Shown one piece after another: positions 7,553 to 36,300 of a DNA stretch of 64,000 bases. Made by a program: the position numbers and the translations under genes. The stretch lies in assembly GCA_020629715.1 (NCBI GenBank), contig JAHDCU010000009.1:124001-188000 (forward strand), in the 5' to 3' direction. The notes below the pieces were generated by a model. The model searched no databases, was not told the DNA's origin, and was given only the letters and a program-made list of their open reading frames with translations. The stretch's first letter is position 1; every line of letters begins with the position of its first letter. The DNA is from Saprospiraceae bacterium (lineage in GTDB: Bacteria; Bacteroidota; Bacteroidia; Chitinophagales; Saprospiraceae).

Positions 7553-7564
7553 AAGAATCAATTT

Positions 7565-8345: not shown

Positions 8346-8436
8346 CCCAACTCTTAAAAATTTCTTTCAAATACAATAAATCGAAGCCTATTATGGTTAT
8401 ATGGTTGCAATAACAATTCTATACTAAATCCAATAT

Positions 8437-8646: not shown

Positions 8647-8724
8647 ACCTTTATGGTTTTCTGTAATTTATGATTAGTGAGCTGCTACAGTAGTTCTCTT
8701 GATCTCCCTATGTCACTTTAATCC

Positions 8725-9351: not shown

Positions 9352-12300
9352 ATGAGAAAACTACCAAGCTCTCAGTATCTTTCTGAGAAAAACTTTATTG
9401 CTGGATTTACAATTCATGTAAATCGTTATCTATTTCTTTTATTAATACTACAGATTACATCCTACTCTTTAGAAAGCCAGGACTGTAGTTTTGTGAGTAA
9501 TGGAGATTTTTCTTCAAACCTTACAGGGTGGAATGCATCTGGCAACGTGGCAGCTTCAGGAGGGCAGGCAGTATTTAGTCAGAGCAACTCTCCAGTAGAT
9601 GGAGTTATATCACAAAACATAAGTTTAACTACCTGCAACGAATATGAACTTACACTTGATGTAGGTGCAGCTGGAGTCAATAATTCTCAAGCCGTAGAAG
9701 TATTTATAGATGGTGTATCTCAAGGTATATTTAATCCTCAATCGTCTAACCCTAATAGAATTACCTTACCCTTAACAGCATTGCAAGATAATATTGAAAT
9801 CAGATTTGAGGATAGAACTGGAAATACTATAGCGGAAGATCTTTTTCTAGATAATATAGAAGTATGTGAAATAACTAATAACGAAGTAGACATCACATTG
9901 GCAAATATTGCAACATCAGTCAATAGTTGTGGAGATCTATCCTATGGTGTTTTGATAAGCAATGCCACTAATGCTAGTCTCATGAATGGAATGCTCATAC
10001 TTCCTGATGCTCTGGAGTACGAATCTATAAGTGATGTATCTGGAGCTACAGTAACTGGTGCTGCCTCAGGCACAGTTTCTATTTCTAATATAACGAGCTC
10101 AGATATAAGTTTTGCTGTCAATACGAATGTGGGTTGTAATATGATCAACACAAGTGATCAAATTGGTTTTACTGTATCATATGTAGATTGTAATAGTAAT
10201 ACAATAACGTTTGACGAAACCTTCAATAACGTCACCCTTAACTCTCCTAATATTGATATAACCAATAGTGCTCCTCCCTTTTTTAATGCTCAGATAGGTC
10301 TAGAGCAATCCATAATGAATACAGTCGAAAATGTGGGTAATGCTGACGCTGCTGATGTAATCTATTGTGTTCTAGATAATGTAAATCTAAACTTAACAAA
10401 TGTTACAATTGGAGGTGTTTCATTATCCGCGGCAAGCAGCTCTCCTGCAGGTCAATCTTGTTTTGTAATACCTGGGGGTATAGCGCAAGGCGCATCTGTA
10501 GATGTAGTAGAAACCTATACTGTAGTATCCTGTATAGCTACTTCTGATGATCTGACTAGGCGAGCACAGTTTGGATGTGATGATGACAGTGATTGCTTAG
10601 AAGAACCGCAAGGTCAGTTTCCATTGACTACCATTACATATGATGTGCCAGACCCTATTCTAGACATTGATATTAACTTTGTATCCAATATCAATATTTG
10701 TGGACCAGTAGAAACAGCTACGGTATCAATTATGTATACCAACGGTCAAGATGTAGATCTCACAAATGTCAATATTGAGATGCTCATGCCAGATAATATT
10801 GAGATCACAGCAATAAACTCAATCAGTGGAGGGACGATTACATCTGATGCAACCAATACGATGCTAAGTGTAACGGACTTAGCCCCAAATACAACCCTTA
10901 TCTATGAAGTAGAGATGATTTCAGGATGTGCTATGAGTGGAACTTCCCAATCTTTTGATTTAAATCTGACTCATGATCCGCTATGTGAAGGTGCCACCGA
11001 TAATGCAATTGCCTCGTCTAATAATTATAGTTTACAATCGGCTAACCTTTCTGTCCTATCGTCAAGTATTATTGGTAATCAACGTCCTGGAATGAATATT
11101 TATGACGCCATTCTGGGCATAGTAGATACTTTAAAGGTGCCCGTGGTAAATGCAGGATCTGGTGTAATTGAAGAGTTTACTTACTTTGTTATCAATCCTC
11201 CTTCATTAACCATACAAGGCGTTTCTTTTGCCGGTATGAATATTCCTCCCTCCAGTACTAACGGAGATACTGTTTTCTATACCATTGGTTCGGACATTAT
11301 CATGCAAGCAATGCAAGGTACTACCGTAGATGGAGATAGCTTTTTTGAAGAAAATGAGTCTATATTTCTCTGTGAAGCATGGCTCGGTACAGAGTGCCAA
11401 ACCGGCCAATTGGAGCCTATCATGAGAGGGGCACAGTTTGGATGTCAAGGAGTCACTTGTTCTGTCAGTAACATATCAAGTACAGGTATCAATTTTGATT
11501 TTGCAGGGCCCGATCTAGCGATTTCTACTTACGAGCCTTACACTTATAGACCAGCTTGCTATGCTACAGAAAACACCGAGTACGGTTTTGAAGTCACTAA
11601 CAACGGTCTAGCAAATGCTAAGGATATCACTTTTGAAATCAATCAAGAGTTCTATACTGGAGCAATAGTAGGTAGTTCATTGATGTACTCTATTGGTGAT
11701 CCAAATGGACCATTCACAGCAGCTACAATAGGTAGTAATGATCCTAATCCAGGATACGGATGCGTAAGTGGAGCAGATAATTATCGTAGCCTCAACGCAG
11801 AAATGCTAAACGTTGATCTCGAACCAGGTCAAACCTTATATTTTAAATATGAATTGGATCATAGTTGTAATTGTAGAGGCTGTGATGTCCTATATGTATA
11901 TAGAAATAATGTAAGAAGTGTTACTTACACTGATCCTTGTGATAAAGACTTTATTGATAATACGGATTATCAACGTGGTGGAAATAATGCCCGTTTCTTC
12001 GGATTTGTAGAAGGAGAAAGTAACTCTCCAGCTTCTGGAGGATGTGTACGATATTCGGTTACGGATGCTCAGAATTCTTGGTTTTCTGGAAGTAACAGAA
12101 CGCTATATCCCAATGCTTATTTAGAAGTAACTATTGTCGCAGATTGTGGTCTTGACATAGCCCCATCATCTATTCAATGGGTTGATGAGGATGGCACTGT
12201 GTATACACCTACAATTGTTAACGGAACAGATAATAATGGCGTAGGGATTGATGATGAAATAGTAGTACGATTTGGTGATACCGCTGCAGGCAACGACCCT

Positions 12301-15300
12301 TATCCATCTGGATTTTCGCTTAGTGGTGATACCGGTTTAGAGTTTTGTTATACCCCAGACTGTTCAGAAAAACCAGGAGGAGGTTGTAGTACTACGAGTA
12401 ATATTACAGTAAATCCAACATTCGTTACAGACCCTAGCTGTGTGGCTTGTACAGAACGAGCTGACTGCAGTACTCCGTTTCCAATATCTTTTGATTGTCC
12501 AGGATGTGGTCCTTGTGATGGTATGTCTCATACCAATCTTGATATTAGAAGAGTCAATTATGGTCTCCCCGATGCGGACAATGATCAATCTCCTGATGGC
12601 GGTATTATCATTGATACAAGCCTAGTCGCTTTTAAGAGATTTTTGACAGGAGATACCCTAAAGGCCACTTTTGAAGGTATTGTAAATGATGATGATAATA
12701 GTGAAACCTGGGTGAATGCTTTTGCAACTATCGATATCAATTCTACCAATTTTACCATACTTGGGGGTGACCTAAAAGTATACGATGCTAGCAATGGAAA
12801 TATGCTAAGATCGTGTCAAGTACTTTCTCAATTTGCTGATGGTACTCGTCTCGTGACAGATATATCTGCAGATGTATTGAGTGGTTTGGCCTGTGATGAT
12901 TTTGATGGTTTCCAATATGAAGATCAAGATAGTGTAGTAGTATGCGTTTATTACAAGACTAAAGATGAGCTCATCAATGAGCAAAGTGAAAATGTGACCT
13001 ACAACACTTGGTTCTACCTAAGTGACGATACCTATGCTCAAGGTGATACTGCAAGATGTAATTTTCTATTTGAAAATATGCAGCAGATCGGTATCCGTAA
13101 TTATCACAATGATGTGATCGCAGGACGTAACTTCGGTGGATGCGAATTATCTCCATTTTATCTACGTAGTGATTTGAATTACGGAGCTCTTGGTTTCGAT
13201 GAATTTCCTAACGAAATCAGACCAGTAGGAACACCAGAAACTATTGTTTTCACAAAGCCTAGCGAATTCAACTTTAGGAATGATAGTCATCAATTTAGAT
13301 ATCGTCAGTACATCGGGACTGATCGCGATATTGTACCGCAATCGTCTGTCATTCCTCAACAATATTTTATTGAAGATGGCGACGAACTCACGTTCTTAGC
13401 CAAAGACTATCTTGAATCCCTTGGACATGATGAATTACCTATGGATGAAGGTGGTATTTTCTGGTTTTTTCCAGCGATACAAGGTAATTGTCTTTCGGAA
13501 GAAACTACCTACCAGTCTTCTTTCGCGGCTACATGGGAAGTAGATGAACAAGTATTTTGTGCTCCATCTTTTGAGGTTGAAGAAACCACTGAGAACTGGA
13601 ATTATACTGGAGGAGCAGAGCTTATCATTACAACGCCCACTCCTGTGAATAATATCAGAGAACCTAGAGCATGCGTAACGCTCGAGCTTAAAAATACAAC
13701 CAATATAGACGCTCCATTTTCATTCCTTAATATTCAAGCCACGACTGGAGGGTTAGTTGTTCAATCATTAACAGAAACAACTGACGGTGCCAGTACACTT
13801 ATCACCCCTACGGACTTTGGCATTTACCCTCTAATGGATACTGATGCTGGAGCCAATAGATCGTTCGAACTTTGTGTAAATGTTACAGATTGTGATCCTC
13901 AAACGCTTGACTTTTCAGCAGGTTGGGATTGTGTAGAATATCCTACCACAATTGAAGAAGCCACTTGTGCAGACCCATCATCTATCCAGTTTAATACAGA
14001 ATTGGGATCATTAGATGGTCAACTTATTACACCTGGAGCCAATATATCTGTAGACCTATGTGACACGGTAGATTTTGTGTATAAAATGAGCAGTACTCAG
14101 GTTGGTAATATTAAAGATGTAATCTTTGACTTCACTCTACCTGGTGGTATGGAATTAGTTCCTAATACCTACGAAGTCGCTTACCCAGTTCCCTTTGATG
14201 AAAGTATGGCGGTATACCAATACTTCCAAGAACCTATACTGACCAGTGGTACAACATTCATAGATACCGTGACGGCCCATTATGGTCAGTTAGATTCTTT
14301 TGGGCTAATAGGAAGTCCAGGGTCTATTACTAACTCTAATATTATACTTGCAAGATTTAAAGCTCGGACAACTTGCGGGTATACTTCAGGAGCTACTCCA
14401 TCATTTGGATCATCTGCTTCTGACGCATGTAACCAACCCGTAAATATAGTAACCACTCCAGGTGTAAGAGTCTTGATCACCGATAATATACCCAACTATG
14501 ATATTAATATCGACATAGGAGATCTTACGCTCAACCCTTGTAACGAAGACGAATCTGTTATAGAAGTTGGACTTACTATAAGCGCAGGAGCTGGTGTAAC
14601 AACAGAGGTTGGTGACTCGACCTTTGTAATATTACCTCCTGGTATAGAGTATACAGGAATCTATAATAATATTTCTAATTCTTCTATACCTCCCGTTGTA
14701 GTTGATGATAATGGGAAAACAATTTTAAAAATGCCTCTCGAGGCAGGCCTTGCTAACGGAGATCAAGTAGTATTCGACTTAGGGGTACGTGCAGTAGATA
14801 TTGGTCAATCATGCAAAATTTACGAAATACTTATACAGACTAATTCTACTAGAGAAGAAATGTGTGGTATGGAAACCTGCGATATCAAAGTACTCAGCGG
14901 TGAAAAAAGAATAAATGTAAGTATTCAAAAGCCTCAATTGGATATCGATGATCTAGAACTTACCCTTGCGACTATGCCGCCCAATATGGGTACGTTAAAC
15001 TATACGGTAGTTATAGAAAATAATGGTCTAGTACCTCAATCTGCGGTCAACGACATTAATTTAGAATTGTACAGCGATGCCAATAATAATGGTTTTGTAG
15101 ACTATGGTTCTGATCTATTAGTAACTACCATTACTGAAAATGCTAATATTGCTCCAGGACAATCCGTAACCATCACAGGTTCAATGCCCTTGCCACCCAC
15201 AGGCCTCTGTAATGTGCTCGGAGCGATCAATAATCAGACAACCTGTACTTGTAGTAGCTCCAGTAGTAATCAAATCAAAGTTGATATTGAAAACAATTTT

Positions 15301-18300
15301 GACGACATGGTGGAGGTATGCTCTGGTGAGAGTATAAGTATAGGACCAGATCCTATAAATGGCTATGATTACGAATGGGTTGGAGTAGAAAGTGCCAGCG
15401 AAACCGCATTATCCACAACGACTGCAACCATGACTAATTTCCAATTCGATAATACATCAGGCAGTAATATCGTATGGGATTATGCTTTGAGGACTTCATT
15501 TGAAACCTGTTATAGTTTTGATACCGTACAGGTCACTTTATATCCAGACAACGATGCTACTGTTGCTCCCCAAGCATGTATAGGTTCAAGCTTCGTACTG
15601 CCAGGACCAGGAGGTGGAAGCAATTTTATGACTACTCCAGCGACAGGTCTTGATGACCCAAGCTCACAGACACCAAGAATAGATAATATTACTGAAGGTA
15701 TCACAACATACACCATGACCTACGATGACATCAATGGATGTCCTACAGAAAGAGTTTTTAATGTTAATGGTATCACTTGTGCTCCGAATACTGGAATTGG
15801 AGACACCATCTTCTATGATCTTAATCTAGATGGTATCCAAGATATGACTGAAGTTGGTATCCCTAACGTTACAGTCTTTCTATACAACAGTACTAATACC
15901 ACTCCAGGTAACCATATTGGTATCACCATGACGGATGCTAATGGATACTATATTTTCGAAAATATACCTTCAGGTAATTATGCTGTAGGAGTTGACTTTC
16001 CAGCAGGTTTTATACCTACTGCACAAGATGTAGGTCCAGATGACAATGATAGTGATATAGATGCCACTACAGGACTTACGGGAGCTTACTTTATACCGAA
16101 TGGTATGATAGATACCACGGTTGATGCGGGCTTTATTCCAGATTGTTCGCTAATGGTAGAAATCGTAGCCATAAGTGAATGTCAGTTTACAGATCCAGGG
16201 CACCAAAGAGAAGTGACCATAGAAATAGACTGGACTAATGCAGTATACACCTATGACTTTTTAGGTGGATCAGATACGATTGTGCTGACTACTTTAGGTC
16301 AAGAGTTTAAATTACCCATCACAACCCTTAATGGTAGCACGAGTGTCAATGTTGTAATGCAAGGAGGTACAGTAGATCAAGATATCATTGCAAATGTTGT
16401 ACTTACCGATCACCCAGTTTGTATGGCTATGGATGAGGTGATGAACGTCTCGGCATGTATATATGATGTTGCTATGATCAAAGATCTAGACCCGACGATA
16501 GTACCCGTATATGGTCAAGAATTACCCTTTGAAATTACAGTTGCGAATCAAGGTCAACAGCCACTCAATAATATAAAGATCAATGACTATCTGCCAGCGG
16601 GTATGACATTTGATCAGGCATCCAATCCAAACTGGATGCAATCAGGTGATACCTTAATGTATTTGGTTAGTGATACGCTTGATGTTGGAGAAATGATACA
16701 AATCCCATTAAACCTTGCCATTGTTATGTCTGACCAGCAAGGTGCATATCTCAATAAATCAGAAATTGTTTCATTCCAAGACACCCTAGGAACCGATCGC
16801 TCAGCTCAAGATATAGATAGTACTCCTGATAATAATCCAAATAACGATGCTGGTGGTTTAGCGGATTCAGGTTCTGATGATTCTTTTGATGGAGATGGTA
16901 GTGGAGCCATAGATGATAACAATCCCAATACAGATGAAGATGATGCCGATCCAGAGTTGGTTTCTATTATAGATGTGGCATTGGCTAAAAATATCGTTAC
17001 ACCTGGACCTTATACCTATGGACAAGCTGTAACATTTGAGATCGTTGTCCACAATCAAGGAAATGTCGATTTACAAAACATCGTGGTTAATGATTTTATA
17101 CCTGCTGGATACTCTTATTTACCCGTTAACAATACAGATTGGTCAGAGATAGGGGGTACCGCTTCTACAACGATCGGTATGTTGCCCGCTTTATCTAGTA
17201 CAACAGTATCTATCGAATTACAAATAGAAGAAGCAGGAGACAAAGACTATGTAAATATCGCAGAGATAGAATCTTTCCAAAACCTTGCAGGAAATGATAT
17301 TTCTGATAGGGATATAGATAGTCGAGCAGATGGTGATCCTACTAATGATGCAGGTGGACTTCCTGGAAGCGATAGCGATGGATCTATTAACGGTAATGGT
17401 ACAGGGGCAGCATTAGATAATGATGCTACCACCGATGAAGATGATATGGACGTAGCATTCATATCTGTACCAATGCTTGATGTGACTAAAACAACGACTG
17501 GAGTCGAAATGGCCTCTAGCCAAGTACAAGGCAACTTTGATGTGACCTTCGAAATTGAATTGGAAAATACGGGTACTACCAAGTTGAATAATATCAAACT
17601 CCAAGATAACTTACAAGAACAGATTGGAGGTACATTTATTAGAGTAGTAGGAGTTCCAGAAATAACGTCTAGTAATGCGACGATGGATCCTACCGTAAAT
17701 ACCGGGTATAATGGAGCTGTAATTGATAGCATTTTCACTGGTATAGATGGTTGTCTAAGAGTAGATGAATCTCTTACTGTTGAAATCACAATAGAGGTAG
17801 TAGGCCTTTCTGGTACAGACGTCAATGAAGCTATTGCTATGGCAACTGATAGTCTAGGCTCGATGGTGATGGATATGGATACTGCCGTCATCAAAATCCC
17901 AACTTGTTTCCTAGATGTAGATTGTCCTTTAGTGGACCAAGGAACATACACTTGCGCTGATCAAGTGCCGGCAGCAGCTACAGATGTTGCTTCTTTCAAT
18001 GCTATTGATAGTGCTGCAGATATCAAAAATTTCTGTGAAATACCAACTGTAACGGTTGTAGAAAGTAGTTCAGGTACAGGGTGCCCTGCTTCTCCCTTGA
18101 CCATAACTAGAACATATACTATTACAGATGCTGGTGATCCAGATATAGGTCCTGAAACTGTAGAATGTACCGTGACTTATACCGTCATAGACAATGTCAA
18201 ACCCATCGTAATGGCAGAGGCCTCAGATCTATTTTTAGAATGTGCAGACCCCGCAAATACCGCTTTGATTAACACATGGGTTGCTAATAGTGGTGGAGCT

Positions 18301-21300
18301 ACCGTCATGGAAATGTGCTCTACTCCATCTTGGACCAGTGCAGCTGGTACACCTAGTAATGATTGTGGGAATAGTAACACAACTCCTTACACTTTTACGG
18401 CCACAGATGATTGTGGAAATTCAGTCACTATTACAGCAAATATTGTAATTACTGATACTACAGATCCAATCATTAATCTTCCTACCTCCACCGATAATGC
18501 AGAATGTGGAACTACTGAAGAAGCAACGTTAGCCACGTGGTTAGCTAGTGCTTCTGGTTCAGATACCTGTGGAGATGTTACCGTTACTGCAGCATTAGTT
18601 TCTACTACAGAAGGTTGTCTGTCTACCAATACTGTAGTTACCCATACCTATTTATTCACTGTCACAGACGAGTGCGGAAATGTAACTACAGCAACAGATC
18701 AATTTAGAATTAATGATACGACTGCGCCGTCTATAACGGCGCCATCCAATCTAACGATTGCATGTGGAGATGATGTTTCAGCGATGCTAGCCGATTGGTT
18801 AGATAACTATACCGTCACTGAAGCTTGCCAAGACTTTACCGTTTCAAACAACTATAATGGATCTGTGCCTAGCCTATGTACAGGCAGTCCACTTGTAGTC
18901 GTATGGACCGTAACGGATGACTGTGGTGCATCAAGTACTGCTTCCGCATCCATAGTAGTCACTCCGGATACTACTAACCCTACTTTCGTGAACTGCCCCG
19001 CTGATATCACCATGAATGTAGATGCTGGTCAGTGCGATGCCAATATTGTCTATTCTACTCCTATAGCTGACGATTGTAATGGTGCTACCGTAGCCTTTAC
19101 CAGCGGAATCATGTCAGGTCAGACTTTCCCTCTTGGTGATACAGATATTGTCTTTACAGCAACTGATGCTTGTGGTAATACATCTACTTGTGAATTCACC
19201 ATTACCGTTGTAGATAGCGATGAACCCACCATACAATGCCCAACCAATGATGTGGTCGTTTGTAACGACGATAACTCTTGCACATGGAATAGTACTGCAG
19301 CAATCACTCCCGTCGGACTAGATGATTGTCCATCTGCTTCTATATCCCATCAAGTCACAGGAGCTACTACCATTGCTGCTAATACGGCAGGAGCAATTCC
19401 TACAGGGACTTCATTTGCATTAGGGACATCAACTATCACCTATACCATTACGGATGGTGCTGGTAATACATCTACTTGTAGTTTTAATGTAGTCGTCGAA
19501 GATTGTACAGCACCTGTCATTACTTGTGCGGCTGATCTTACCTTAGAGTGTGGTGATGCTACTAACAGTACTGCCATTTCAACTTGGATAGCTAATACTA
19601 CAGCAACCGATAACTGCCCCGCAGCAGCAACCTCTGTAACGGTTACCAATGAAATCATTGCTACGCTAGAGCAATGTGGAAATGCTACAACAACCATTTA
19701 TCAATTCACGGCTACAGATGCCGCAGGAAATACCAGTACTTGCAGGTCTAATGTGATCATAGAGGATAATACAGCTCCTGTCATAGCCGCATTTACTACA
19801 GATGTTACGGTAGAGTGCGATGGCAATGGTAATGTCGATGGTCTTTTAGGATGGTTAGCAGATCATGGTAATATCCCTGAGGCTAACGTAACGGAAGCTT
19901 GTGGAAACTTTACTTGGTATAATGATTATTCACAAGCCTCTTATACAGCCAATGCAACTTGTGCAGATGATATCGGTATGTATACCGTCAACTTCTGGGT
20001 AGAGGACGAGTGCGGTAATACTTCCAATATGATCCAATTAGATTATATCATTGAAGACACGACTGACCCTGTGCTAGAAGCACCTGCTAATCTTGTAATT
20101 AACTGCGGAGATGATGCCAATACAAGTATCATTAATCAATGGCTACAACAATACAATGCAACAGACCTATGTAGTAATGTCTCTGTAGCTAACAACTATA
20201 ATACACTTACCCTACCGACTACCTGTGAGGCTGGTAGTAATATGATTACGGTCATGTGGACAGCTACGGATGATTGTGGAAATGAAAACACAGCCACGGC
20301 AAGTATTACCATTGTTGATAATGAGCAACCAGTAATTATGGTGCCACCGACAGATCTATTCGTGGAATGCAGTTCAGCTAGCAGAGCTGCAGACATAGCA
20401 GCTTGGATAGCGGCTTCAGGTAATGGCTCTGCTACTGATAATTGTGCAGATCCTGTAACGATAAGCTTTACCGCTGGTACCCCGCAAAATCAATGTGGTA
20501 GTACAAGCACAATACCTTATACGTTTACAGCTACAGATGAATGTGGAAATTCTATTTCTACTTTCGCCAATTTGATCATCGTAGATGAAACTCCTGCTAT
20601 ACTCACATTACCAACAGCAACAAATACTTTTGCTTGTAATGCCGTGGGTACAGGGCTTACAGATTGGATTGCATCAGCTAGTGCTACAGATGAATGTGGA
20701 GGTGATGTAACTATCACAACAGCATTAATATCAGAAGTATCTTCCTGCGATACCGATATGCATACTAATATGACGAGTACCTATCTATTTACCGCTACCG
20801 ACGCTTGTGGAAATATATCTACTGGTCAAGCGGACTTTATAATAGAAGACACCACTGCGCCATCGATCACTGCACCTTCAAATCTGACGATTGCATGTGG
20901 AGATGATGTATCAGCGATGCTAGCCGATTGGTTAGATAACTATACCGTCACTGAAGCTTGCCAAGACTTTACCGTTTCAAACAACTATAATGGATCTGTG
21001 CCTAGCCTATGTACAGGCAGTCCACTTGTAGTCGTATGGACCGTAACGGATGACTGTGGTGCATCAAGTACTGCTTCCGCATCCATAGTAGTCACTCCGG
21101 ATACTACTAACCCTACTTTCGTGAACTGCCCCGCTGATATCACCATGAATGTAGATGCTGGTCAGTGCGATGCCAATATTGTCTATTCTACTCCTATAGC
21201 TGACGATTGTAATGGTGCTACCGTAGCCTTTACCAGCGGAATCATGTCAGGTCAGACTTTCCCTCTTGGTGATACAGATATTGTCTTTACAGCAACTGAT

Positions 21301-24300
21301 GCTTGTGGTAATACATCTACTTGTGAATTCACCATTACCGTTGTAGATAGCGATGAACCCACCATACAATGCCCAACCAATGATGTGGTCGTTTGTAACG
21401 ACGATAACTCTTGCACATGGAATAGTACTGCAGCAATCACTCCCGTCGGACTAGATGATTGTCCATCTGCTTCTATATCCCATCAAGTCACAGGAGCTAC
21501 TACCATTGCTGCTAATACGGCAGGAGCAATTCCTACAGGGACTTCATTTGCATTAGGGACATCAACTATCACCTATACCATTACGGATGGTGCTGGTAAT
21601 ACATCTACTTGTAGTTTTAATGTAGTCGTCGAAGATTGTACAGCACCTGTCATTACTTGTGCGGCTGATCTTACCTTAGAGTGTGGTGATGCTACTAACA
21701 GTACTGCCATTTCAACTTGGATAGCTAATACTACAGCAACCGATAACTGCCCCGCAGCAGCAACCTCTGTAACGGTTACCAATGAAATCATTGCTACGCT
21801 AGAGCAATGTGGAAATGCTACAACAACCATTTATCAATTCACGGCTACAGATGCCGCAGGAAATACCAGTACTTGCAGGTCTAATGTGATCATAGAGGAT
21901 AATACAGCTCCTGTCATAGCCGCATTTACTACAGATGTTACGGTAGAGTGCGATGGCAATGGTAATGTCGATGGTCTTTTAGGATGGTTAGCAGATCATG
22001 GTAATATCCCTGAGGCTAACGTAACGGAAGCTTGTGGAAACTTTACTTGGTATAATGATTATTCACAAGCCTCTTATACAGCCAATGCAACTTGTGCAGA
22101 TGATATCGGTATGTATACCGTCAACTTCTGGGTAGAGGACGAGTGCGGTAATACTTCCAATATGATCCAACTAGATTATATCATTGAAGACACGACTGAC
22201 CCAACAATTGAAGCGCCAGCTAATCTTGTAATTAACTGTGGGGATGATGCGAATACAAGTATTATCAATCAATGGCTACAACAATACAATGCAACAGACC
22301 TATGCAGTAATGTCTCTGTAGTTAACAACTATAATACGCTGACCTTGCCTACAACATGCAATGAATCAATTACTGTGATGTGGACAGCTACGGATGATTG
22401 CGGAAATGAAGAAACGGCTACTGCAACGATAAGTATTGTGGATAATGAACGACCTATCATCGTTACTCCTCCAGCTGATCTATTTGTGGAATGTGATGGT
22501 GCTGGTAATACGGTTACGATCAATACATGGGCAGGAATCTTTGCTGGAATGACCGCATCTGATAATTGTGACAATGCAGTAACTCTCAGTGCAGTACCAG
22601 GAACCATCATTGACGAATGCGGTAGCTCATTGACTATACCATATATTTTCACAGCAACAGATGACTGTGGAAATTCTGTAAGTGAGATCGCCTACGTTTA
22701 TATAGAAGACACAACTCCTCCAGTCATCACATTACCTACCGCAGATAATACCGAAGACTGTAATGGAGATATTACTGCGAGTGTAAATACTTGGCTTGCA
22801 AGTGCTTCCGCTACAGACGTCTGTGGAGGTCCTACTTCGATAAACTATAGCTTAGTAAATGAAGTCGAAAGTTGCAGCGGTACCAATACCTTTATTACAA
22901 GAACTTATGCTTTTACGGCAACAGACGATTGTAATAATGAAAGCACGATTTCAACAGCAACTTTTGTCATAGAAGATACTACTGCACCTGTAATAACTGC
23001 ACCAAATGACTTGACCATCACATGTGGTGATAATATCGCACTACTGATCAGTCAGTGGTTAGAAAACTATACGGTTGTAGAAGCTTGTCAAAGTGTTAGT
23101 GTTAACACAAACTTTAACCCTGCTCTAGTACCAAACCTTTGTGACGGAGCTCCATATACTGTGACGTTTACTGTCACCGATGGTTGTGGCGCCATGAGTA
23201 CAGATCAAGCTGATATCATCGTAACTCCTGATACTACAAGTCCGACATTTATCAACTGTCCAACTAACCTTACCGTAAATGTAGATGCTGGTCAGTGTGA
23301 TGCCAATGTAGTATATTCAACACCAGTAGCAGAAGATTGCAATGGTGCTACTGTAGCCTTTACAAGTGGAATTAGATCTGGTCAGACCTTCCCTCTTGGT
23401 GATACAGAGATAGTATTTACGGCAACTGATGCATGTGGCAATACAAGTACATGTGAGTTTACGATTACCGTGGTAGATAGTGACGAACCAATGTTACAAT
23501 GCCCATTCAATGATGTCGTGGTTTGTACCGATACAGATGTTTGTACATGGAACAGTACTTCATCAATATTACCAATCGGCTTAGATGATTGTCCATCGGC
23601 TATGATTACTCATGAAGTATCTGGTGCAACAGTTATTGCTGCAAATTCAGCGGGAGCAGTTCCTGTAGGAACGGTATTCTTATTAGGTACATCTACTGTT
23701 ACTTATACCATCACAGATGGTGCTGGAAATAGTAGTACCTGTAGTTTTGATGTTGTGGTAAATGATTGTCAAGCACCAACCTTAACATGTAGTGATCGAA
23801 GAGATGTTGCTTGCGGAAGCGAAGATCTACAGGGATGGTTTGATTCTATAGAATCGACAATGACTGATAACTGTAGTGCTACGGATGATTTGACATTCAC
23901 GCAGCAATTGATCACTGATTTTAGCAGCTGTGGTGGTACTATTGAGCAAACATATCTATTTACTGTTACAGACGAAGCTGGTAATAGTAGTACTTGTTTC
24001 GCTACGTATGAAAGTGATGATACTGTAGACCCTTCTATTGATACCGAGGCAAGCGACCTTACTATCCAATGTAATGGTGGCACTCAAAGTACTGCTCTTA
24101 TTGCTTGGTTAGAAAATAATGGAGGAGCAGTAGCAAGCGATGCCTGTAGTGGTCCCATATCGTGGACAAATAATTACACTGGCGATTTGACGACAGTATG
24201 CGGTACTAATGGTGCGGTACTAGTTACTTTCACCGCTACCGATGACTGTGGTAATTTCTCTACCACTTCTGCTACTTTCACGATAGAAGATACAACAGCA

Positions 24301-27300
24301 CCAGTACTCACAGTTCCCAATAACTTAGTCTTAGAATGTGGTAATAATCTGAATGATGCGATTATAGCGAATTGGATAAATTCAGCCTCTTCAGAAGACG
24401 CTTGTGAGGGTACATTATCAGTTACAAATGATTATACTACGGCAACACCAACAGACCTTTGTGGTCAGACTGGTGTAACAACCGTAACTTTTACCACAAC
24501 TGATGCTTGTAACAACGAGACGGTATTAACCAGAACCATTACCATAGAAGACAATACAGCTCCAAGCATAGACTCAGAAGCTCAAGATCTCTTACTGGAA
24601 TGTGCAGATCCTAACAATGCAACGCTTATTGCAAATTGGTTAACTGCCGATGGAAATGCCATTGCTAGTGATATCTGTAGTGATGAAGCTCTTGTTTGGT
24701 TAGATCCGATCGCAGGTGTAGATATGTCTACTTGTGGTGATGCAACCACAACGATGTATACATTCACGGTAGAAGATAACTGTGGTAATACAAGTACTAC
24801 AACGGCAAGTATTATCATAACAGATACGACAGCTCCGATCCTTACGGCTCCTGTAGCGCAAGTCGAAGAGTGTGGTAATATCGTAGTCGATATTGATTCT
24901 TGGAAAGCTGAAGCTACAGCGACTGATGATTGTGACAGTGATGTAGTGATCACGAATCAACTATGGAATACGATCCCAGCATGTGGAAATACCTATGAAG
25001 AAACATACCTCTTCACAGCAACGGATGCATGTGGTAATACAAGTACCGCTTTCTCTACCTATACCGTAGAAGATACTTCTGACCCAACAGTAATACCACC
25101 AAGTGCAGATCTAGTATTAGAATGTGGAAATGAATCTAATGATCAACTAATATCAGCTTGGCTAGAATCAGCAACCGCGACTGATGCAAATGATTGTAAT
25201 GCTGTGGAAGTGAGCTATACATATCCGGGTAATTTACCTACGATAGACTGCTCAGGCAATGCAGGGATCACCGTTACGTTCTCCGCAACAGATGCATGTG
25301 GAAATACCAATACAGGTACTCGTATGATCATCATGAATGATACTACCAATCCTGTATTCCTCAACTGTCCTGCAGATATGACTGTCAATGTAGATGTTGA
25401 TCTCTGTGAAAATAACGTAGTATACAGTACTCCTGTAGTCTTCGATACTTGTGATGATAACTTAACGTTGACTCCAGATCCTGATAATATCCCAAGTGGG
25501 TCTGCTTTCCCATTAGGAACAACTCCGATTTCATACACCGTTACTGATGATTGTGGAAATACAGCAGTATGTGAATTTACCATTACGGTAGTAGATAGTG
25601 ATGTACCGAGTATTGATTGTCCAAGTAATCAAGTCGTCGTCTGTACTGATGATAATAGCTGTACTTGGAATGCCGATGCACAAACCAATCCTATTTATAA
25701 TGACAATTGTCCAGGACTGGATGTAATCTATACCATTACAGGCGCCACAACAGCCTCTGGCAATGCAGATGCAATCAATACCGTCATGGGAGATGGTATT
25801 GTATTCAACTTGGGTACCAGTACTGTAACCTATACCATTACTGATCCTGCTGGTAACTCTAGCTTCTGTTCTTTCGTAGTCATCGTAGAAGATTGTCAAA
25901 GTCCAACTTTTAGTTGTAGTAATGTACGTGATATCGCCTGTGGTGATGAAGATATCGCAGGATGGATGGCAGACATACAGGCTACGGCAATGGATAACTG
26001 CAACAGCAATGCAGAGTTGACGATGACGAATGTTCTACTCACTGATTTTAGCAGTTGTGGTAATACATTTGAGCAGACATACTTATTCACCGTAAGTGAT
26101 CTTGCAGGTAATACAAGTACTTGTATCGCTACCTATGAAACAGATGATACCGTTGATCCTATTATTGACAACAGCAATACTGCAGATCTTACACTAGAAT
26201 GTTCTGGCGGTAATCAAAGCCAAGCTTTATTAGGGTGGTTAAATAACAATGCGGGTGCTACGGCTACGGATGCTTGTAGTTTACCGATCGTATGGACCAA
26301 CAATTACACAGGAGATTTGACAACGGTATGTGGTACTACAGGTAATGTGACCGTAGTTTTCTCAGCAACAGATGACTGTGGTAATACAAGTACAACTTCT
26401 GCAACCTTCACGATAGAAGATACAACCGCTCCAGTACTGACACTACCTAATAACTTAGTATTAGAATGCGGTAATAATCTAAATGATGCCATCATAGCCA
26501 ATTGGATAAACTCAGCCTCTTCTGAAGATGCTTGTGAAGGTACTCTTGCCGTTACAAATGACTATGCTACCGCAGCTCCAACAGACCTTTGTGGAGAAAC
26601 AGGTGTAACCACGGTAAGCTTTACCACAACTGATGCTTGTGATAATCAAACCGTATTAACCAGAACCATTACCATAGAAGACAATACAGCTCCGAGCATT
26701 GACTCAGAAGCTCAAGATCTCTTACTGGAATGTGCAGATCCTAACAATGCAACGCTTATTGCAAATTGGTTAACTGCCGATGGAAATGCCATTGCTAGTG
26801 ATATCTGTAGTGATGAAGCTCTTGTTTGGTTAGATCCGATCGCAGGTGTAGATATGTCTACTTGTGGTGATGCAACCACAACGATGTATACATTCACGGT
26901 AGAAGATAACTGTGGCAATACGAGTACAACAACGGCAAGTATCATTATAACAGATACAACCGCTCCTATACTTACGGCTCCTGTGGCTCAAGTAGAAGAA
27001 TGCGGTAATATCATTGTAGATATTGATTCTTGGAAAGCTGAAGCTACAGCGACTGATGATTGTGATAGTGATGTAGTCATCACCAATCAACTTTGGAATA
27101 CGATCCCTGCTTGTGGCAATACCTATGAAGAAACATACTTATTCACCGCAACAGATGCCTGTGGTAATACGAGTACAGTATTCTCAACGTATACCATAGA
27201 AGATACAAGTAATCCAACAGTAATACCACCAAGTGCAGATCTAGTATTAGAATGTGGAAATGAATCTAATGATCAGTTAATATCAGCTTGGTTAGAATCA

Positions 27301-30300
27301 GCAACCGCGACAGATGCCAATAATTGTAATGCTGTGGAAGTGAGCTATACATATCCAGGTAACTTACCAACGATTGATTGCTCAGGCAATGCAGGGATCA
27401 CGGTTACGTTCACCGCAACGGATGCATGTGGCAATACGAATACAGGTACTCGAATGATCATCATGAATGATACTACAGCTCCAGTTTTCCTAAACTGTCC
27501 TGCAGATATGACGGTGAATGTCGATGTTGATCTTTGTGAAAACAATGTAGTATACAGTACTCCAGTAGTATTCGATACATGTGATGATAACTTAACGTTG
27601 ACTCCAGATCCTGATAATATCCCAAGTGGGTCTGCTTTCCCATTGGGAACAACACCGATTTCATACACCGTTACTGATGATTGTGGAAATACGGCAGTAT
27701 GTGAGTTTACGATCACGGTAGTAGATAGTGATGTACCGAGTATTGATTGTCCAAGTAATCAAGTAGTCGTCTGTACAGATGATGGCGATTGTACATGGAC
27801 TGCCGATGCACAAACGAATCCAGTTTACAATGACAATTGTCCAGGATTGGATGTAAGCTATACCATTACGGGAGCAACAACAGCCTCTGGTAATGCAGAT
27901 GCAATCAATACGGTATTAGGAGACGGTGTAGTGTTCAACTTAGGAACAAGTACAGTTACTTATACCATAACTGACCCTGCAGGTAACTCTAGTATATGTT
28001 CTTTCATAGTCATCGTAGAGGATTGTGAAAGTCCAACGTTTAGTTGTAGTGATGTAAGGGATATCGCTTGTGGTGATGAAGATATTGCAGGATGGATGGC
28101 GACGATACAGTCGACGGCTATGGATAACTGCAATAGTAATGCTGAATTGACGATGACGAATGTTCTACTCACAGACTTTAGTAGTTGTGGAAATACTTTT
28201 GAGCAGACATACTTATTCACCGTAAGTGATCTTGCAGGTAATACAAGTACATGTATCGCTACCTATGAAACAGATGATACGGTTGATCCAGTCATCGACA
28301 ACAGCAATACTGCAGATCTTACACTAGAATGTTCTGGCGGTAATCAAAGCCAAGCTTTATTAGGGTGGTTAAATAACAATGCGGGTGCTACGGCTACGGA
28401 TGCTTGTAGTTTACCGATCGTATGGACCAACAATTACACAGGAGATTTGACAACGGTATGTGGTACTACAGGTAATGTGACCGTAGTTTTCTCAGCAACA
28501 GATGACTGTGGTAATACAAGTACAACTTCTGCAACCTTCACGATAGAAGATACAACCGCTCCAGTACTGACACTACCTAATAACTTAGTATTAGAATGCG
28601 GTAATAATCTAAATGATGCCATCATAGCCAATTGGATAAACTCAGCCTCTTCTGAAGATGCTTGTGAAGGTACTCTTGCCGTTACAAATGACTATGCTAC
28701 CGCAGCTCCAACAGACCTCTGTGGCGAGACAGGTGTAACGACGGTAACTTTTACCACAACGGATGCATGTGATAATGAAACCGTATTAACCAGAACGATA
28801 ACGATAGAAGATAACACTGATCCGAGCATAGACTCTGAAGCACAAGATCTCTTACTAGAATGTGCAGATCCTAACAATGCAACGCTTATCGCGAACTGGT
28901 TAACTGCCGATGGTAATGCCGTTGCTAGTGACATCTGTAGTGATGAAGCTCTTGTTTGGTTAGATCCGATTGCAGGAGTAGAAATGTATACTTGTGGTGA
29001 TGCAACCACAACGATGTACACATTCACAGTAGAAGATAACTGTGGTAATACAAGTACGACAACGGCAAGTATTATCATAACAGATACGACGGCACCAGTA
29101 CTTACGGCTCCTGTAGCGCAAGTCGAAGAGTGTGGTAATATCGTAGTCAATCTAGCTACATGGCAAGCAGAAGCTATGGCTACTGATGATTGTGACAGTG
29201 ATGTAGTCATCACAAATCAACTATGGAATACGATCCCAGCATGTGGTAATACCTATGAAGAAACATACTTATTCACAGCAACAGATGCATGTGGTAATAC
29301 GAGTACAGCATTCTCTACCTATACCATAGAAGATACGACTGATCCAATTGCCATGTGCTGCCCTGATTTTGATATCGCATTAGGGGACGATGGATTAGCA
29401 TCAATTACAGTTGATGACATCAATTGCGGATCTACAGATAATTGCACATCAGCGGAAAACCTACAAGTAAGCATAGATAAAGCCTTATTTACTTTTGAAG
29501 ATGTAGGTGATAATGTAATCACTTTAACCGTTACCGATGAATGTGGTAATTCTAGCACATGTACTACCACAGTCAATGTGCTTGCCAATGCAAATATTGG
29601 TATAGCCAAAAGAGTAGTTTCTATAACCAATAATCCAGATGGTTCAGCCAATGTGATCTTTGAGTTTAATATTCAAAATTATGGAGAGACACCAGTAAGT
29701 AAAATCCAAGTGAATGACTTGATGGGTGATGTATTCATGGCACCTTGTATGGTTACGATTGCTAGTATTACGAGTGATGAATTTACAGTCAACGAAGATT
29801 ACGATGGATATGCAGAGATGAATATGCTCGTGGGTGATGATATCATCAACGCTGGAGATAAAGGAGCTATTCTCGTAGAAATAGTTGCTGATAACTGTGT
29901 ATCTCAAGGACCATATTTCAATACCGCAACGCTTACAGGAACATCTCAAGATGGCAGCATATTGATGGATGTTTCTATGGATGGTAGTAATCCTGATCCT
30001 TCTGGAGATGGGTCGGCTACCGAATCTTCTGAAACACCGATTACTTTCTTTAACAATAACGTAATCGGTATCGCTAAACGTGTAGTCAATGCAACGCTTA
30101 ATCAAGATGGTAGCTATGATATCATTTATGAGTTCAATGTTGAAAACTATGGTACAGAATTCCTAAGAGAGGTACAAGTCATGGATAATTTGGGCTCTGT
30201 ATTCATGGCGCCATGTGCCATCAATATTGTTGAGCTGACGAGTGACGATTTCATCGTGGGTGACTATGATGGAGTTTCAGATATTACTTTATTGAGTGGT

Positions 30301-33300
30301 GTAGATGAACTCTGGCCTGGAGAAAAAGGAGCCATACTATTAGCCATTAACGTCGAGGATTGTGCAGGCAACCTAGGACCATTCTTCAATAGTGCATTTG
30401 CAAGTGGTCTCGACCCCGATGATGTTGTGATTTCTGATACTTCACATGATGGTAGTAATCCTGATCCTGATGGTAATGATATACCAGATGAAGATGACCC
30501 AACTGTCGTCAGCTTTATGGAAGCGCCTTCACTAGGAGTAGCTAAGCGCATAAGTTATGGACCAGTATCCGAAGATGGGATGAACTGGGAAATGAGCTAT
30601 GAAATAAAAGTAGTGAATGGTGGAAATATTGATATTGAGTTAGACGCTATCAACGAAGACCTTGCCACTACATTTAGTATGGCAGAAGGATGGCAAATAT
30701 TAGGGTATGAAAGTGATGAACTTTTCTTAAATCCTGATTATGATGGTGATAATGATATCAACCTGATCAACCCAGGAAATATTCTGATGGCGAATGGTGG
30801 TGATGCAACCATATTAGTTACCGTTTTAGTAAATCCTGATGATTTTGATGGTCCATATAATAACTCTGTTGTGGCAAATGGTCGTACTCCGGGAGGTCAG
30901 TTCTTGTCTGATATTTCACAAGATGGTACCGATCCTGACCCAGATGGTACAGGCTTTGAAAATAATAATGATCCGACACCTGTTACATTCGGTTGTTGTG
31001 GTCAAATATTGAATATTCCCCCTGATACGATAGCTCCTGTATTTATAAATTGTCCTAGACCTCCAGTCATCGTAGATGCTCCAGAGGGATGGTGTAGTGC
31101 TTTTGTAAACTTCAGCCCTCCTGTATTAGAGGATGATTGTAGTGCAACAGATGAAATCACGGTTATTCAAATAGACGGCACAGGTCTGGAGACCGGAGAT
31201 TTATTCCCGGTAGGACTATCCGTATTGATTTTCCAAGCAACAGATAAATGTGGAAACTCTAGCACATGTGAGATCGAAGTGATCGTCAATGATTTCCATA
31301 CACCACCGATGATCAGTTGTCCAGAAGATCAATCGTTGACCACTATAGCGAGTACTTGTGAAGCTATCGTCAATGATATTTCTCCGCTCGTCGTGGATAA
31401 TTGTCCTGATAATACTTCTCTACGATATGAAGTAAAACAAAATAATGTCGTAGTAGAATGCGGTATTGGTGATGCTTCTGGAATTGTACTTCCTGCTGGA
31501 GAATATACGATGTGCTATACCGTATTTGATCAACCATTGATCTGGGTTACCGAAATCAATCAATCAGGAACTGATCAACTGGAAATCACCAATATGGGAC
31601 CTAATACCTTCAATATTGGATATCTCAAAATACGTAGAACAGGTCTTGGTGCAGAGTTAGACACCGTACCATTGAATACGATTTTAGCCGTAGGCGATAC
31701 GTATACACATACGTTTGATACTGATATTGCAGAGACCGATCCTGCTGGTTATGAAATATTCTTTTATAACAATACATACGACATTGTAGCTACGAATGGA
31801 TTCCCTCTTACGGGATGGTCTGGTGAGTTGACCAGTGGCGATGCGTACAGAACAGATCATTGTTTGGGTAATCAAGCAAGTGACTGGACTCTCGTTTCTG
31901 AATGTAACATGAGCTCTATCAGTATATTGAATGATGGACTGACTCCACTGCCTGATAATGGAGCATCTAGCTCATTACAATCAGAGCCACCATCTATGGA
32001 TGCTTGTACATTCAATATCGTAATTGCTGACGAGGAAGCTCCACAATGTGCTTCTGTAGAAATCCTAGATTTCACAAATACCAATGTGAATATAAATGCC
32101 AACGCTTGCGAAATGAGTACGATTACCGTAACTCCTTCTACAGAGTTGTGGGGTGTTCAAATTAGTGATTTACGGATCACTCATCCTAATGTAGCGGATC
32201 TTAACATTAGCTTACTTGGACCTAACGGAGAAGAAGTACAACTCATTTCTAATCTATGTGCAGGTATGGCAGATATTAATGTCAACCTATCGGATACCTC
32301 AGCGACTAACGTAGCTACAGCACCTTGTGCTCCTTTGGGTAATGGTGGTTGGTATATTCCTATAGAGTCACTCAGTCCATTTGATGGTATCCTTTCTGGT
32401 GGAGACTGGACGCTTATTGTAGAGAATACAGGTGAAGATGTAGGAACATTAGATTCTTGGACCTTAGAGTTGATTTCATACTTACCATATGACCAAGCTG
32501 ATGTAGTCATTGAAAACGATGACGATGTTTGTGGTGCTGTATATACTTGGACGCATCCAGTAGCGAGAGATAATTGTAATATGGCATTGATTATGGTAGA
32601 ATACACTTCAGATGATAATATTACATTACCATCTGACGGTTTAGTGCCTCAAGGCATGGAAGTCACAGAACTCTTTGCCGTAGGTACGACGCAAGTGACA
32701 TACTATTTAGTAGATAACTCAGGAAATACCAATACTTGCGGATTTACTGTGACCGTCAATGATACTCAGGCCCCAGAATTACCAGATGGTTGTCCAGATG
32801 ACATAGATATTAACTTAGATCCAGGAGCATGCTGTGTACCGATCACATTCACAGATCCTACAATTGTAGAAAACTGTGCCGTAGATACAATCATTTACTC
32901 ACCTTCTACCGGTTCGGAGTTTTGCACAGGTATGACAGAAGTAACCCTTACGGTGAGAGATGAAAGTGGTAACGAAACTACATGTACATTCAATGTCAAT
33001 ATCATAGCACATGAGCCAGATCAAGGAACATTTGCTTGTAATGGAAGTATCAACCTATCGCTGGGTACAGATTGTACAGCAACGGTCACTCCAGATATGG
33101 TACTAGAAGGTGACTTCTATGGCTGTTATGATGATTACTGTGTCACGGTGATCGATGCACAAGGCGATACGATACCTAATGCTACCTTCGATCTATCGCA
33201 TGTGGGAGGTATGTATACAGTCACGATCTCTGATTGTAATGGTGGAGGGAACTCTTGTTGGGGAACTATCAACCTAGAAGAGAAACTAATACCGGAAATA

Positions 33301-36300
33301 GAATGTCCTTCTGATATCACCATCAGTTGTATCGACGATTATGAAGACTTTACACTTACAGGTGATGTTACCTTATTGACTTGCGAAACCAATATTGTAA
33401 CGACGCATGTTGATTCTCTAGCCGTATATGGAAACTGTGATGATCCAAGGGCAGATATTTTCAGGACTTGGTATGTATCTGATTTTAGTAACAACTCAGT
33501 AAGCTGTACTCAGAAAATCACAATTAAAGGATATGAAACATTAGATATACAGTGGCCAGACGATCTGACTCTTGCTAATTCGCTCGACTGTGCATCGGTA
33601 GATGCTGATCCAGCGCTCACAGAGCCTGCACAATCAGGTATGCCTATGATCGCAGGTAATCCAATCATTGGAAATCACTTCTGTGAAATCAATGTAGGAT
33701 ATTGGGATGAAGTATTGGTAGACGCCAACTGCCCTACTGGATACTCTATATTGAGAAATTGGATCATCGAAGATGAATGTAGTCCATTATCAGGTGACCT
33801 TAATCCGATCAGACATATACAACGTATAAAAGTAGATGATAAGCTACCACCGGTCATCAACCTACTGGATGATGTTACCATAGAGGTGAAAGAAGACAAC
33901 TGTACAGCTGATTATACATTGCCAGATATTGTACAAAATGATAACTGTAGTGAAGCTACTTTTGTAATCAATACTCCGATTGGAGATGTAAGTGGAAATA
34001 GTATCAATAATTTACCGAAAGGACGACATGAAATCACCATCATCGTGACCGATGTATGTAATAATCAAGTGATCCATAAGTTGAATATTACGGTGACAGA
34101 TTTGACATCCCCTACGATAGTTGCGCAGCAAAACACAGTAGTAAGTATCTCCAATATCACGGGATCAAGAATCTATCTAGAAAGTATAGATGAAGGCTCA
34201 TATGATAATTGCTCAGAGGTACATCTCGAGATCAGAAGAATGGATGATATCTGTGGTATCGCTGGTAATACTACATTCAATAATGATGGACATGAAGACG
34301 ATGATCCAGCAGATAGCGATGACGGTCAGTACATTACATTCTGTTGTGATGATTTAGATCAAGTAGATCAGGAGGGTAACGTTTTTGGTGAAATCGCCGT
34401 GGTCATCAGAGCTTGGGATGATGCAGATTTTGACAATGTCTTTGGTAGCGCTGGTGATAATATGAATGAAGCCATGGTCATGGTACGTATTCAGGATAAA
34501 ATAACTCCAACGATTACTTGCCCTGATGATATGACGGTTACTTGCGATGTAGACATCTTAGATTTCACAGTATTAGGAAGTGCAATTGCAACTGGAACCT
34601 GTGGTACTATGGAAGTTAGCTATACGGATGAAAACTTCTTGAATGACTGTAACATTGGTACAGTCATCCGTACATGGTCTGTAGATAGTGATCCTTCAGT
34701 AAACTGCACTCAGCGTATTGTCATCAATCCTATTGATTATGGTATTGCCATAGACTGGACTACAGTTCCTGATATGGAATTGACTAATTGTCCGGGTAAT
34801 ATTGATTTCGGAACTCCTTCATGGTCTGCAGATCCTTGTGATCAGGTTGGATTTAGCATTGAGTCCGATACCTTCAATACTAATAATGGAGCATGTTTCT
34901 CTATCTTAAACCAATGGACCGTGATCAACTGGTGTACCTATGATCCGCTCAATCCATTGTCTCCAGGTATATGGAAACATGATCAGACGATACATGTATT
35001 TGATGATGTCGCTCCTGTGATTGCATCTTGCGGTACGGAGACCATTACGATCAATGATGATACAGATGCTGACGGCAATGGTATCACCTGCGAACACAAC
35101 GGCTATGTATATACCAATACAGCAACGGATGGATCAAGTAATGACTGTGCTGGAAGTACACTTTCATGGACGGTAGATTTTGATTTTAATCAAAATGGAA
35201 CTATAGAATATTCTGCTAGTAGCGCTTATCCGAGTTCCTTAGCTGGATCTTGGACGGATCAAAACGGTGTATTACGTACTTACATTACACCTACGGCATC
35301 AGGAACAGTTATGAGCTTACCAGCTATTAATAATATTATTGCGGGTACTCATTCCATCACCGTCAGTACATCCGATGGATGTGGTAATACGACTTCTTGT
35401 ACATCTACGTTAGTTGTAGAAGACAACAAAGCGCCACAGATCTATTGTCTCAATATAGCTACTGCGCTCATGTCCAATGGTCAAGTAGAAATTTGGGCTT
35501 CAGACTTAGTACAAAGTACAGATGATAATTGTAGCGATCAAAATGATATTTTATTGACTTTCGATGGTGTAGCTCCGGTTGCTTCGTTGATTAGTCAACA
35601 ACATTATTTTGATGAAAACGGTGTATCTACTTTAGCTAACTATAATGCAGGCTTAGCGCAAAATTGGAATCCTATTACTAAAGTATCCGCTAAGATATTA
35701 TTAAGTGCTCAGGGTCCATCCTTTACGGAAGAAGTAACCGCATGGGATGAAAACCTCAATAGCTCTAGCTGCATTGTTACGGTCAGTACTTCTGAGTCAA
35801 GTGATATGATGACGATCAATGGTCGAGTAGCGATGTATAGTGGTGAAGACCTCAATAACGTCATTGTTACTAATAGTACTGATCTGATTGGATATCCTAT
35901 TGCAGATACGACAGCAGTGGAAGGATCATTTAGCTTCTCGGATCAATCGATGAACTTGGATTATAACTTGACAGCAGAGAAGGACATAGACTTAATGAAT
36001 GGAGTATCTACGCTAGATCTTGTGATTATACAGCGTCATATTCTTGGCATCAATAACCTTGACAATCCATACAAATTGATTGCAGCGGATATCAACCATA
36101 ATGATAATGTATCTGCCACCGATTTGATCGAACTCAGAAAGCTTATACTCGGTATCTTTGAAACATTACCTAATAATACGTCTTATAGAATATTTACCAA
36201 TGAGACTATCAATAATCCTGAATATCCTTGGGATATGGAAGCTCAATGGTCTATTGATTCTAGTAATATGGTAGATGACTTTGACTTTATGGCGGTCAAA

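What the first reader, a model, noticed from the sequence alone, without database searches (positions are those of the whole stretch)
18724..29340. Eight-domain super-repeat, five tandem copies, in a 9,224-residue protein
Repetition works on two levels: HYR-like domains of about 90 residues, and above them a fixed set of eight different domains (A-H) forming a ~710-residue block repeated five times (711, 709, 699, 710, 710 residues). Domains at the same position in different blocks are more alike than neighbours in one block, so the block, not the single domain, was duplicated. Such an ordered higher-order unit suggests a structural period in an extended fibre. The two-level order is seen directly; the fibre is inference.
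Basis: partly seen in the sequence, partly recalled or inferred. Interest (0 to 1): 0.72.

Follow-up and report, generated by a model that had tools for sequence, protein, structure and literature searches.

The report
Ancient eight-domain repeat in giant protein
A giant secreted protein of a Saprospiraceae bacterium is built from five tandem copies of a fixed series of eight different folded domains, and the same series in the same order recurs in a second giant protein of that genome and in at least 14 other genomes of the family, so it is an old, preserved building unit (comparable in principle to the super-repeat of muscle titin) and not a recent accident of duplication.

Summary
Observation confirmed. 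In the 9,224-aa ORF (window 9352-37026), residues 3122-6660 are five blocks of eight HYR/HYR-like domains A-H (711, 709, 699, 710, 710 aa), preceded by a partial block (G,H). Domains group by position, not by block. New here: the block is ancient. HMMs made only from window copies read the same A-H order four times, plus one variant copy, in a 7,594-aa paralog on another contig; the order also recurs in giant proteins of at least 14 other Saprospiraceae genomes (1-5 intact copies each). Across 35 blocks, 276 of 280 domains have their best match in another genome at the same position. In 295 sampled genomes of the class only our own matched at E<=1e-50. Recent changes act at whole-block offsets: a 1,260-bp exact tract joins blocks 1 and 2; blocks 4 and 5 have dN/dS about 0.07. 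Block length varies as independent domain lengths predict, so the ordered set is conserved, not an exact residue period. The chain ends in a T9SS type A sorting signal behind a ~2,000-aa C-terminal region shared by most relatives. Best reading: a modular Ig-like stalk of a T9SS-exported surface protein. Fibre, binding partner and function are not shown.

The parts
9352..37026 (+). 9,224-aa giant ORF that carries the super-repeat
   Evidence: ortholog pieces in the same-genus genome G085: residues 1-1689 at 83% and 6565-9224 at 95.5%
9352..15795 (+). N-terminal region (aa ~1-2148), with a likely signal peptide by inspection; aa 128-2150 align with the G064 ortholog at 41%
15796..16134 (+). SdrD_B-like domain (PF17210), aa 2149-2261
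   Evidence: E 4e-26
16972..17304 (+). DUF11 (PF01345), aa 2541-2651; best of two stretches
   Evidence: E 1e-19
18190..18714 (+). Partial leading block: domains G0 and H0 (aa 2947-3121)
18715..20847 (+). Block 1, domains A-H (711 aa)
20848..22974 (+). Block 2, domains A-H (709 aa)
22975..25071 (+). Block 3, domains A-H (699 aa)
25072..27201 (+). Block 4, domains A-H (710 aa)
27202..29331 (+). Block 5, domains A-H (710 aa); HYR (PF02494) matches two stretches, HYR_4C (PF23237) six
18778..20037 (+). 1,260-bp tract, 100% identical in DNA to 20911-22170 (block 1 vs block 2)
20911..22170 (+). Second copy of the 1,260-bp exact tract
26167..26588 (+). 422-bp tract, identical to 28297-28718 (block 4 vs block 5)
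28297..28718 (+). Second copy of the 422-bp tract
29332..31011 (+). Post-array region (aa 6661-7220), shared at 42-46% with giants of two further genomes (G050/L051, L057) and the G064 ortholog
31012..37023 (+). Conserved ~2,000-aa C-terminal region (aa 7221-9224), 26-44% identical to the C-terminal regions of most block-bearing giants
32167..32469 (+). P-domain-like stretch (PF01483)
36001..36150 (+). Dockerin-like stretch (PF00404; below the curated cut-off)
36790..37014 (+). T9SS type A C-terminal sorting domain (TIGR04183)

Best explanation
The array is the stalk module of a T9SS-exported, cell-surface giant protein of Saprospiraceae. Eight distinct Ig-like domains (A-H: HYR domains at B and C, 4-cysteine HYR-like domains at the other six positions) form an ancestral supra-domain unit that is duplicated, converted and inherited as a whole, while the order A-H is kept by selection. 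Each position carries its own conserved sequence, so each block presents the same ordered series of surfaces, once per ~700 residues, much as titin's super-repeats do. Copy number is free to change by recombination between blocks in register. Shown: the order, its age, its confinement to the family in our samples, recent in-register homogenisation, purifying selection between recent copies, and the T9SS signal. Inferred: extended stalk shape, repeated binding surfaces, surface anchoring, and a role in adhesion or in building an extracellular filament.
For: Order is conserved far beyond the window. HMMs from window copies alone read 45 of 57 adjacent pairs in cyclic order in the 7,594-aa paralog (best of 20,000 shuffles 19) and A-H cycles in other genomes. 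With positions assigned by counting from an anchor, 276 of 280 domains find the same position in other genomes, and 40 of 40 between the two paralogs. Arrays in genomes not used for training (L047, L048, L049, L050, L054, L057) show no order break. Order is kept without homogenisation: in the paralog, blocks differ as much from each other (0.44 identity) as blocks of different genomes do (0.45); L048, L054 and L115 have 0.38-0.63 between blocks and no order break. Recent events are in register: a 1,260-bp exact tract; blocks 4/5 dS from 0.06 to 0.68 by domain, overall dN 0.026 and dS 0.375; L050 has a duplicated two-block unit and L052 a 98% pair. Sister-species dS is 0.38, so the dS = 0 tract is younger than the species split. 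Secretion: TIGR04183 at the C-terminus and SprA in the genome. Fold: eight beta-rich domains, no residue under pLDDT 50; Foldseek's top matches are mostly tandem cadherin and Ig ectodomains, with an RTX adhesin extender lower in the list.
Against: No function, binding partner or localisation is shown. pTM 0.40 leaves the arrangement of domains open. Two arrays depart strongly from the order (the paralog, with 4-domain units lacking BCDE; L073, with a 12-domain variant) and L061 departs too, so the order is not absolute. The block occurs in a minority of the family (about 8 of 120 sampled genomes give a near-full-length match).
Confidence: 0.62

Rival explanations
1. Neutral by-product: an eight-domain stretch was once duplicated; since then in-register recombination (same positions are alike, different positions too unlike to recombine) has copied whole blocks, so the order persists without any function for it.
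For: Recent duplications and conversion tracts lie at whole-block offsets. Block length shows no compensation, as expected if total length is not selected.
Against: Several arrays show no recent homogenisation (same-position identity equal to that between genomes) yet have no order break in 35-46 domains. Domain insertions and losses do occur in this family (C4, L073, L061), so order loss is possible. dN/dS between recent copies is about 0.07, although folding alone would also give this.
Confidence: 0.28
2. Subunit of a grappling-hook-like oligomeric filament, as GhpA of Aureispira (also Saprospiraceae; 5,898 residues, heptamer), with the super-repeat setting the lateral register between chains.
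For: Giant chains that assemble into oligomeric hook filaments are known: GhpA in Aureispira and the DUF11 protein GhlA in a Chloroflexota bacterium (PMC13319060); T9SS takes part in Aureispira predation (PMC12421860). That Aureispira belongs to Saprospiraceae is my own knowledge. The GhpA base 9fly gave the longest alignment of all listed rows (508 residues, Z 7.4, rmsd 14).
Against: Z under 8 is within the range the tool calls common, and rmsd 14 is poor. Neither single sequences nor profiles of the block and the C-terminal region hit any GhpA chain in the PDB sequences. I have no evidence that GhpA has an eight-domain super-repeat.
Confidence: 0.15
3. Assembly artefact: repeats collapsed or over-expanded by the assembler.
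For: A 1,260-bp exact repeat is the kind of sequence that misleads assemblers; in the same-genus genome a contig ends inside the last block.
Against: Blocks 3-5 and the flanks of the exact tract are diverged enough to be placed; the frame is open throughout; independent genomes have the same order with other copy numbers. Only the exact number of near-identical copies is at risk.
Confidence: 0.03

Closest known systems
HYR (PF02494) and HYR_4C (PF23237) domain arrays of Bacteroidota T9SS cargo
   Same: Individual domains match these families above their cut-offs.
   Different: Most arrays met here are homogeneous (one-domain period) or have other mixed periods (two domains, 168-172 aa, in the same genome; 414-423 aa in L086 and L085); a fixed set of eight in a conserved order was found only in Saprospiraceae.
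Titin A-band C-zone super-repeat
   Same: Two-level repetition, domains grouped by position in the super-repeat, read as repeated binding sites along a partner (PMC10665226).
   Different: Analogy only, no homology claimed: fibronectin/Ig domains of muscle with a known partner (thick filament). Here HYR-type domains, bacterial, exported, partner unknown.
GhpA, grappling hook protein A of Aureispira sp. CCB-QB1 (PDB 9fly)
   Same: Giant chain of tandem beta domains; T9SS takes part in Aureispira predation (PMC13319060, PMC12421860).
   Different: No sequence relationship found; structural match weak; super-repeat not known there.
SprB, 6,497-aa gliding adhesin of Flavobacterium johnsoniae
   Same: Giant surface adhesin of Bacteroidota (PMC9870892).
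   Different: The SprB repeat PF13573 is found at 55 places in this genome but not in this ORF.
SraP binding region of Staphylococcus aureus (4m03/4m00)
   Same: The only PDB chains matched convincingly by the block's sequence profile, over domains B-C (E 9e-6 to 3e-10).
   Different: Two domains only; a Gram-positive protein; no super-repeat.

Membership tests
HYR / HYR_4C domain proteins | Domains score above the Pfam cut-off | tested here: met
   HYR 115.8 and 224.2 bits (cut-off 21.7), HYR_4C 47.0 and 35.7 bits (cut-off 27) for the two halves of the ORF; 72.6 and 59.4 for block 5
T9SS type A cargo | Sorting domain at the C-terminus | tested here: met
   TIGR04183 26.5 bits and 35.2 bits, cut-off 23; PF18962 alone stays below its cut-off (11.2 of 27)
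T9SS type A cargo | Host genome encodes the T9SS translocon | tested here: met
   SprA TIGR04189 on C13, 1609 bits, cut-off 200; other components not tested
T9SS type A cargo | Sec signal peptide | not tested
   a hydrophobic stretch near residues 25-40 is seen by eye only
SprB-type gliding adhesin | SprB repeats PF13573 in the protein | tested here: not met
   55 places in the genome, none in C15:133352-161026
GhpA grappling-hook protein | Sequence or fold homology to GhpA | tested here: inconclusive
   no GhpA chain among PDB sequence matches; weak structural alignment; Ig-like domains can diverge beyond detection
GhpA grappling-hook protein | Oligomeric hook filament on cells | not testable with these tools
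   needs microscopy
Super-repeat architecture (titin-like, as analogy) | Domains group by position in the super-repeat rather than by neighbourhood, in independent proteins | tested here: met
   276 of 280; domain tree 10 changes against a shuffled mean of 56
Super-repeat architecture (titin-like, as analogy) | Period matched to a partner's periodicity | not testable with these tools
   no partner known; block length not compensated

The most novel reading that the evidence does not exclude
Saprospiraceae possess a bacterial counterpart of titin's super-repeat: an exported chain whose conserved eight-domain unit works as a molecular ruler or template, each block offering the same ordered set of binding sites to a periodic extracellular partner or to neighbouring chains, so that the number of blocks sets the size of the assembly.
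Probability: 0.2. Interest if true: 0.85.

Novelty: new variant of a known kind. Interest (0 to 1): 0.62.

Why it matters
Bacterial giant surface proteins are usually described as strings of near-identical or two-type repeats. An ordered set of eight distinct domains, kept in order across many genomes even where blocks are no longer homogenised, suggests that the block, not the domain, is the unit that selection sees. That gives a testable case of supra-domain structure in bacteria, in the family to which the grappling-hook predator Aureispira belongs (family membership of Aureispira: own knowledge).

Tried and rejected
Length compensation within blocks (as a sign of an exact structural period): not seen, SD 8.0 against 8.0 expected. 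Homology to GhpA by sequence: not found with single sequences or profiles. SprB-type repeats in this ORF: absent. The first structure prediction, from window copies only, was poor (pLDDT 71.1, pTM 0.29); the 48-row alignment gave 86.8 and 0.40. No coordinates of the model were available, so rod length, twist per domain and possible metal sites at the junctions could not be measured. A first scan of genome contigs with a single block found nothing; the alignment query worked. Papers on giant HYR proteins of Saprospiraceae: none found. RNA families: only one tRNA in the window.
Full report
WHAT WAS CLAIMED AND WHAT IS THERE. The ORF at 9352-37026 encodes 9,224 aa. Its self-comparison peaks at an offset of 710 aa. 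Cutting at the recurrent D-x-x-x-P domain starts gives 40 consecutive domains of 83-99 aa from residue 3122 to 6660 (window 18715-29331), in five blocks of 711, 709, 699, 710 and 710 aa. Mean identity is 0.61 at the same position, 0.35 between neighbours and 0.35 between different positions of one block. The array is preceded by a G and an H (residues 2947-3121).

THE COPIES ARE NOT EQUAL. Blocks 1 and 2 are near-identical over A-F and diverge at G-H; blocks 3-5 form another group; between the groups B and C remain clearly alike and A in part, while D-H fall to 0.34-0.47. At DNA level blocks 1 and 2 share 1,260 bp without a mismatch (18778-20037 and 20911-22170), and blocks 4 and 5 share 422 bp (26167-26588 and 28297-28718), with sharp changes of divergence at the sides. 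Between blocks 4 and 5 dS runs from 0.06 (E) to 0.68 (H), overall dN 0.026 and dS 0.375. A mosaic of this kind is what gene conversion in register would leave (inference). The C-terminal region of the same-genus genome G085 differs from ours by dS 0.38, so the dS = 0 tract arose after the two species parted, while the 4/5 duplication is about as old as that split or older.

THE BLOCK IS ANCIENT. HMMs built from window copies alone were run on other giants of the same genome. A 7,594-aa ORF on contig C4 reads ABCDEFGH four times in full, with one more variant block, and also contains 4-domain units that lack BCDE. A search of 120 genomes of the family found near-full-length, in-register matches in seven other genomes, the best at 54-59% identity and several in tandem; fetched, they show the same order. 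Flavobacteriales, Lentimicrobiaceae and other hits of that scan have no A-H cycle. In 295 sampled genomes of the class, only our own matched at E <= 1e-50; that sample held few members of the family.

ORDER TEST WITHOUT THE HMM LETTERS. Positions were assigned by counting from the B-C anchor in 35 blocks. Of 280 domains, 276 have their best match in another genome at the same position; between the two paralogs of this genome 40 of 40. The domain tree of the two paralogs needs 10 label changes (minimum 7, shuffled mean 56) and draws B near C, E near G, D near H and A near F, which suggests that the block itself arose from fewer domain types. The block tree places window blocks 1-2 with blocks of G064b (93/98, not starred) and blocks 3-5 with G050a, G019a and G082. 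A multi-block array is thus older than this gene, and copy number has changed since in each lineage.

SELECTION OR BY-PRODUCT. Same-position identity within the C4 paralog (0.44) equals that between genomes (0.45), so its blocks have not been homogenised for a long time, yet five of them keep the order (one with G-like letters at E and H in the first, stricter scan). L048, L054 and L115 are similar (0.38-0.63 between blocks, no order break). Over 19 arrays, 22 of 568 transitions break the order, 21 of them in three arrays (C4, L073, L061). The letters come from HMMs trained partly on the same genomes, so the held-out arrays (L047, L048, L049, L050, L054, L057: no break) are the fair test. I take this as favouring selection on order, not as proof. 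Block length has mean 702.7 and SD 8.0, exactly what independent domain lengths give: the number and order of domains are kept, not the residue count.

WHAT KIND OF PROTEIN. Two stretches of block 5 match HYR (PF02494; the best is B) and six match HYR_4C (PF23237). Each position has four to six conserved cysteines, and most have a conserved aspartate at the domain start and another in the D-x-C-G-N-like turn near the end. Upstream lie SdrD_B and DUF11 domains; downstream a ~2,000-aa region with P-domain and dockerin-like stretches is shared at 26-44% identity by most block-bearing giants. The chain ends in a T9SS type A sorting domain, and the genome has SprA. The N-terminal 2,150 residues are shared, with a block array behind them, by one carrier (G064a, 41%, four blocks); the other block-bearing giants gave no comparable match there. 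So the array looks like an exchangeable module between a variable N-terminal part and a common C-terminal part (inference).

STRUCTURE. With 48 aligned blocks the model of block 5 has mean pLDDT 86.8, none under 50, eight beta-rich domains, most with one short helix, and no disordered linker; pTM 0.40 leaves the overall arrangement open. Foldseek's best matches are mostly tandem cadherin and Ig ectodomains; VIA-align Z values of 7-9 are near the level the tool calls common. The GhpA base of the Aureispira grappling hook (9fly) aligned over 508 residues at Z 7.4 and rmsd 14, but no sequence search reached GhpA. I record it as a lead, because GhpA is a giant chain that forms an oligomeric filament (PMC13319060) and Aureispira belongs, to my knowledge, to the same bacterial family.

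VERDICT. Closest in principle is the titin C-zone super-repeat (PMC10665226), as an analogy without homology. Function remains inferred: a stalk that presents the same series of surfaces once per block.

Noticed in passing
window 54486-63998 (continues to about C15:191500, L009): A second giant ORF (4,367 aa) with a T9SS sorting domain and a two-domain HYR period of 172 aa: a different super-period in the same genome.
   Followed up: partly
L050 (JAHDIN010000001.1), residues 524-3333 of its ORF: Two-block units (16 domains, 1,405 aa) repeated at about 100% protein identity: a third level of repetition by recent duplication.
   Followed up: partly
L086 (Winogradskyella litoriviva) residues ~538-1343; L085 (Mangrovimonas xylaniphaga) residues ~867-1638: Other multi-domain super-periods (414 and 423 aa, about 87% identity) built from related domains in Flavobacteriales.
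   Followed up: partly
L073 (CALLAW010000032.1), residues 213-4286 of its ORF: Variant order with a 12-domain unit (aBCDfBCDafGH) of about 1,036 aa and a 345-aa sub-period: BCD behaves as a movable module.
   Followed up: partly
G064 loci L037 and L038: Blocks 3 and 4 of one giant pair with blocks 4 and 5 of the other giant of the same genome (support 100), suggesting exchange between paralogs or a shared origin.
   Followed up: partly
whole genome G000: About 150 places with a T9SS type A sorting domain and many ORFs over 1,000 aa: a large exported repertoire for a 4.1-Mb genome.
   Followed up: no
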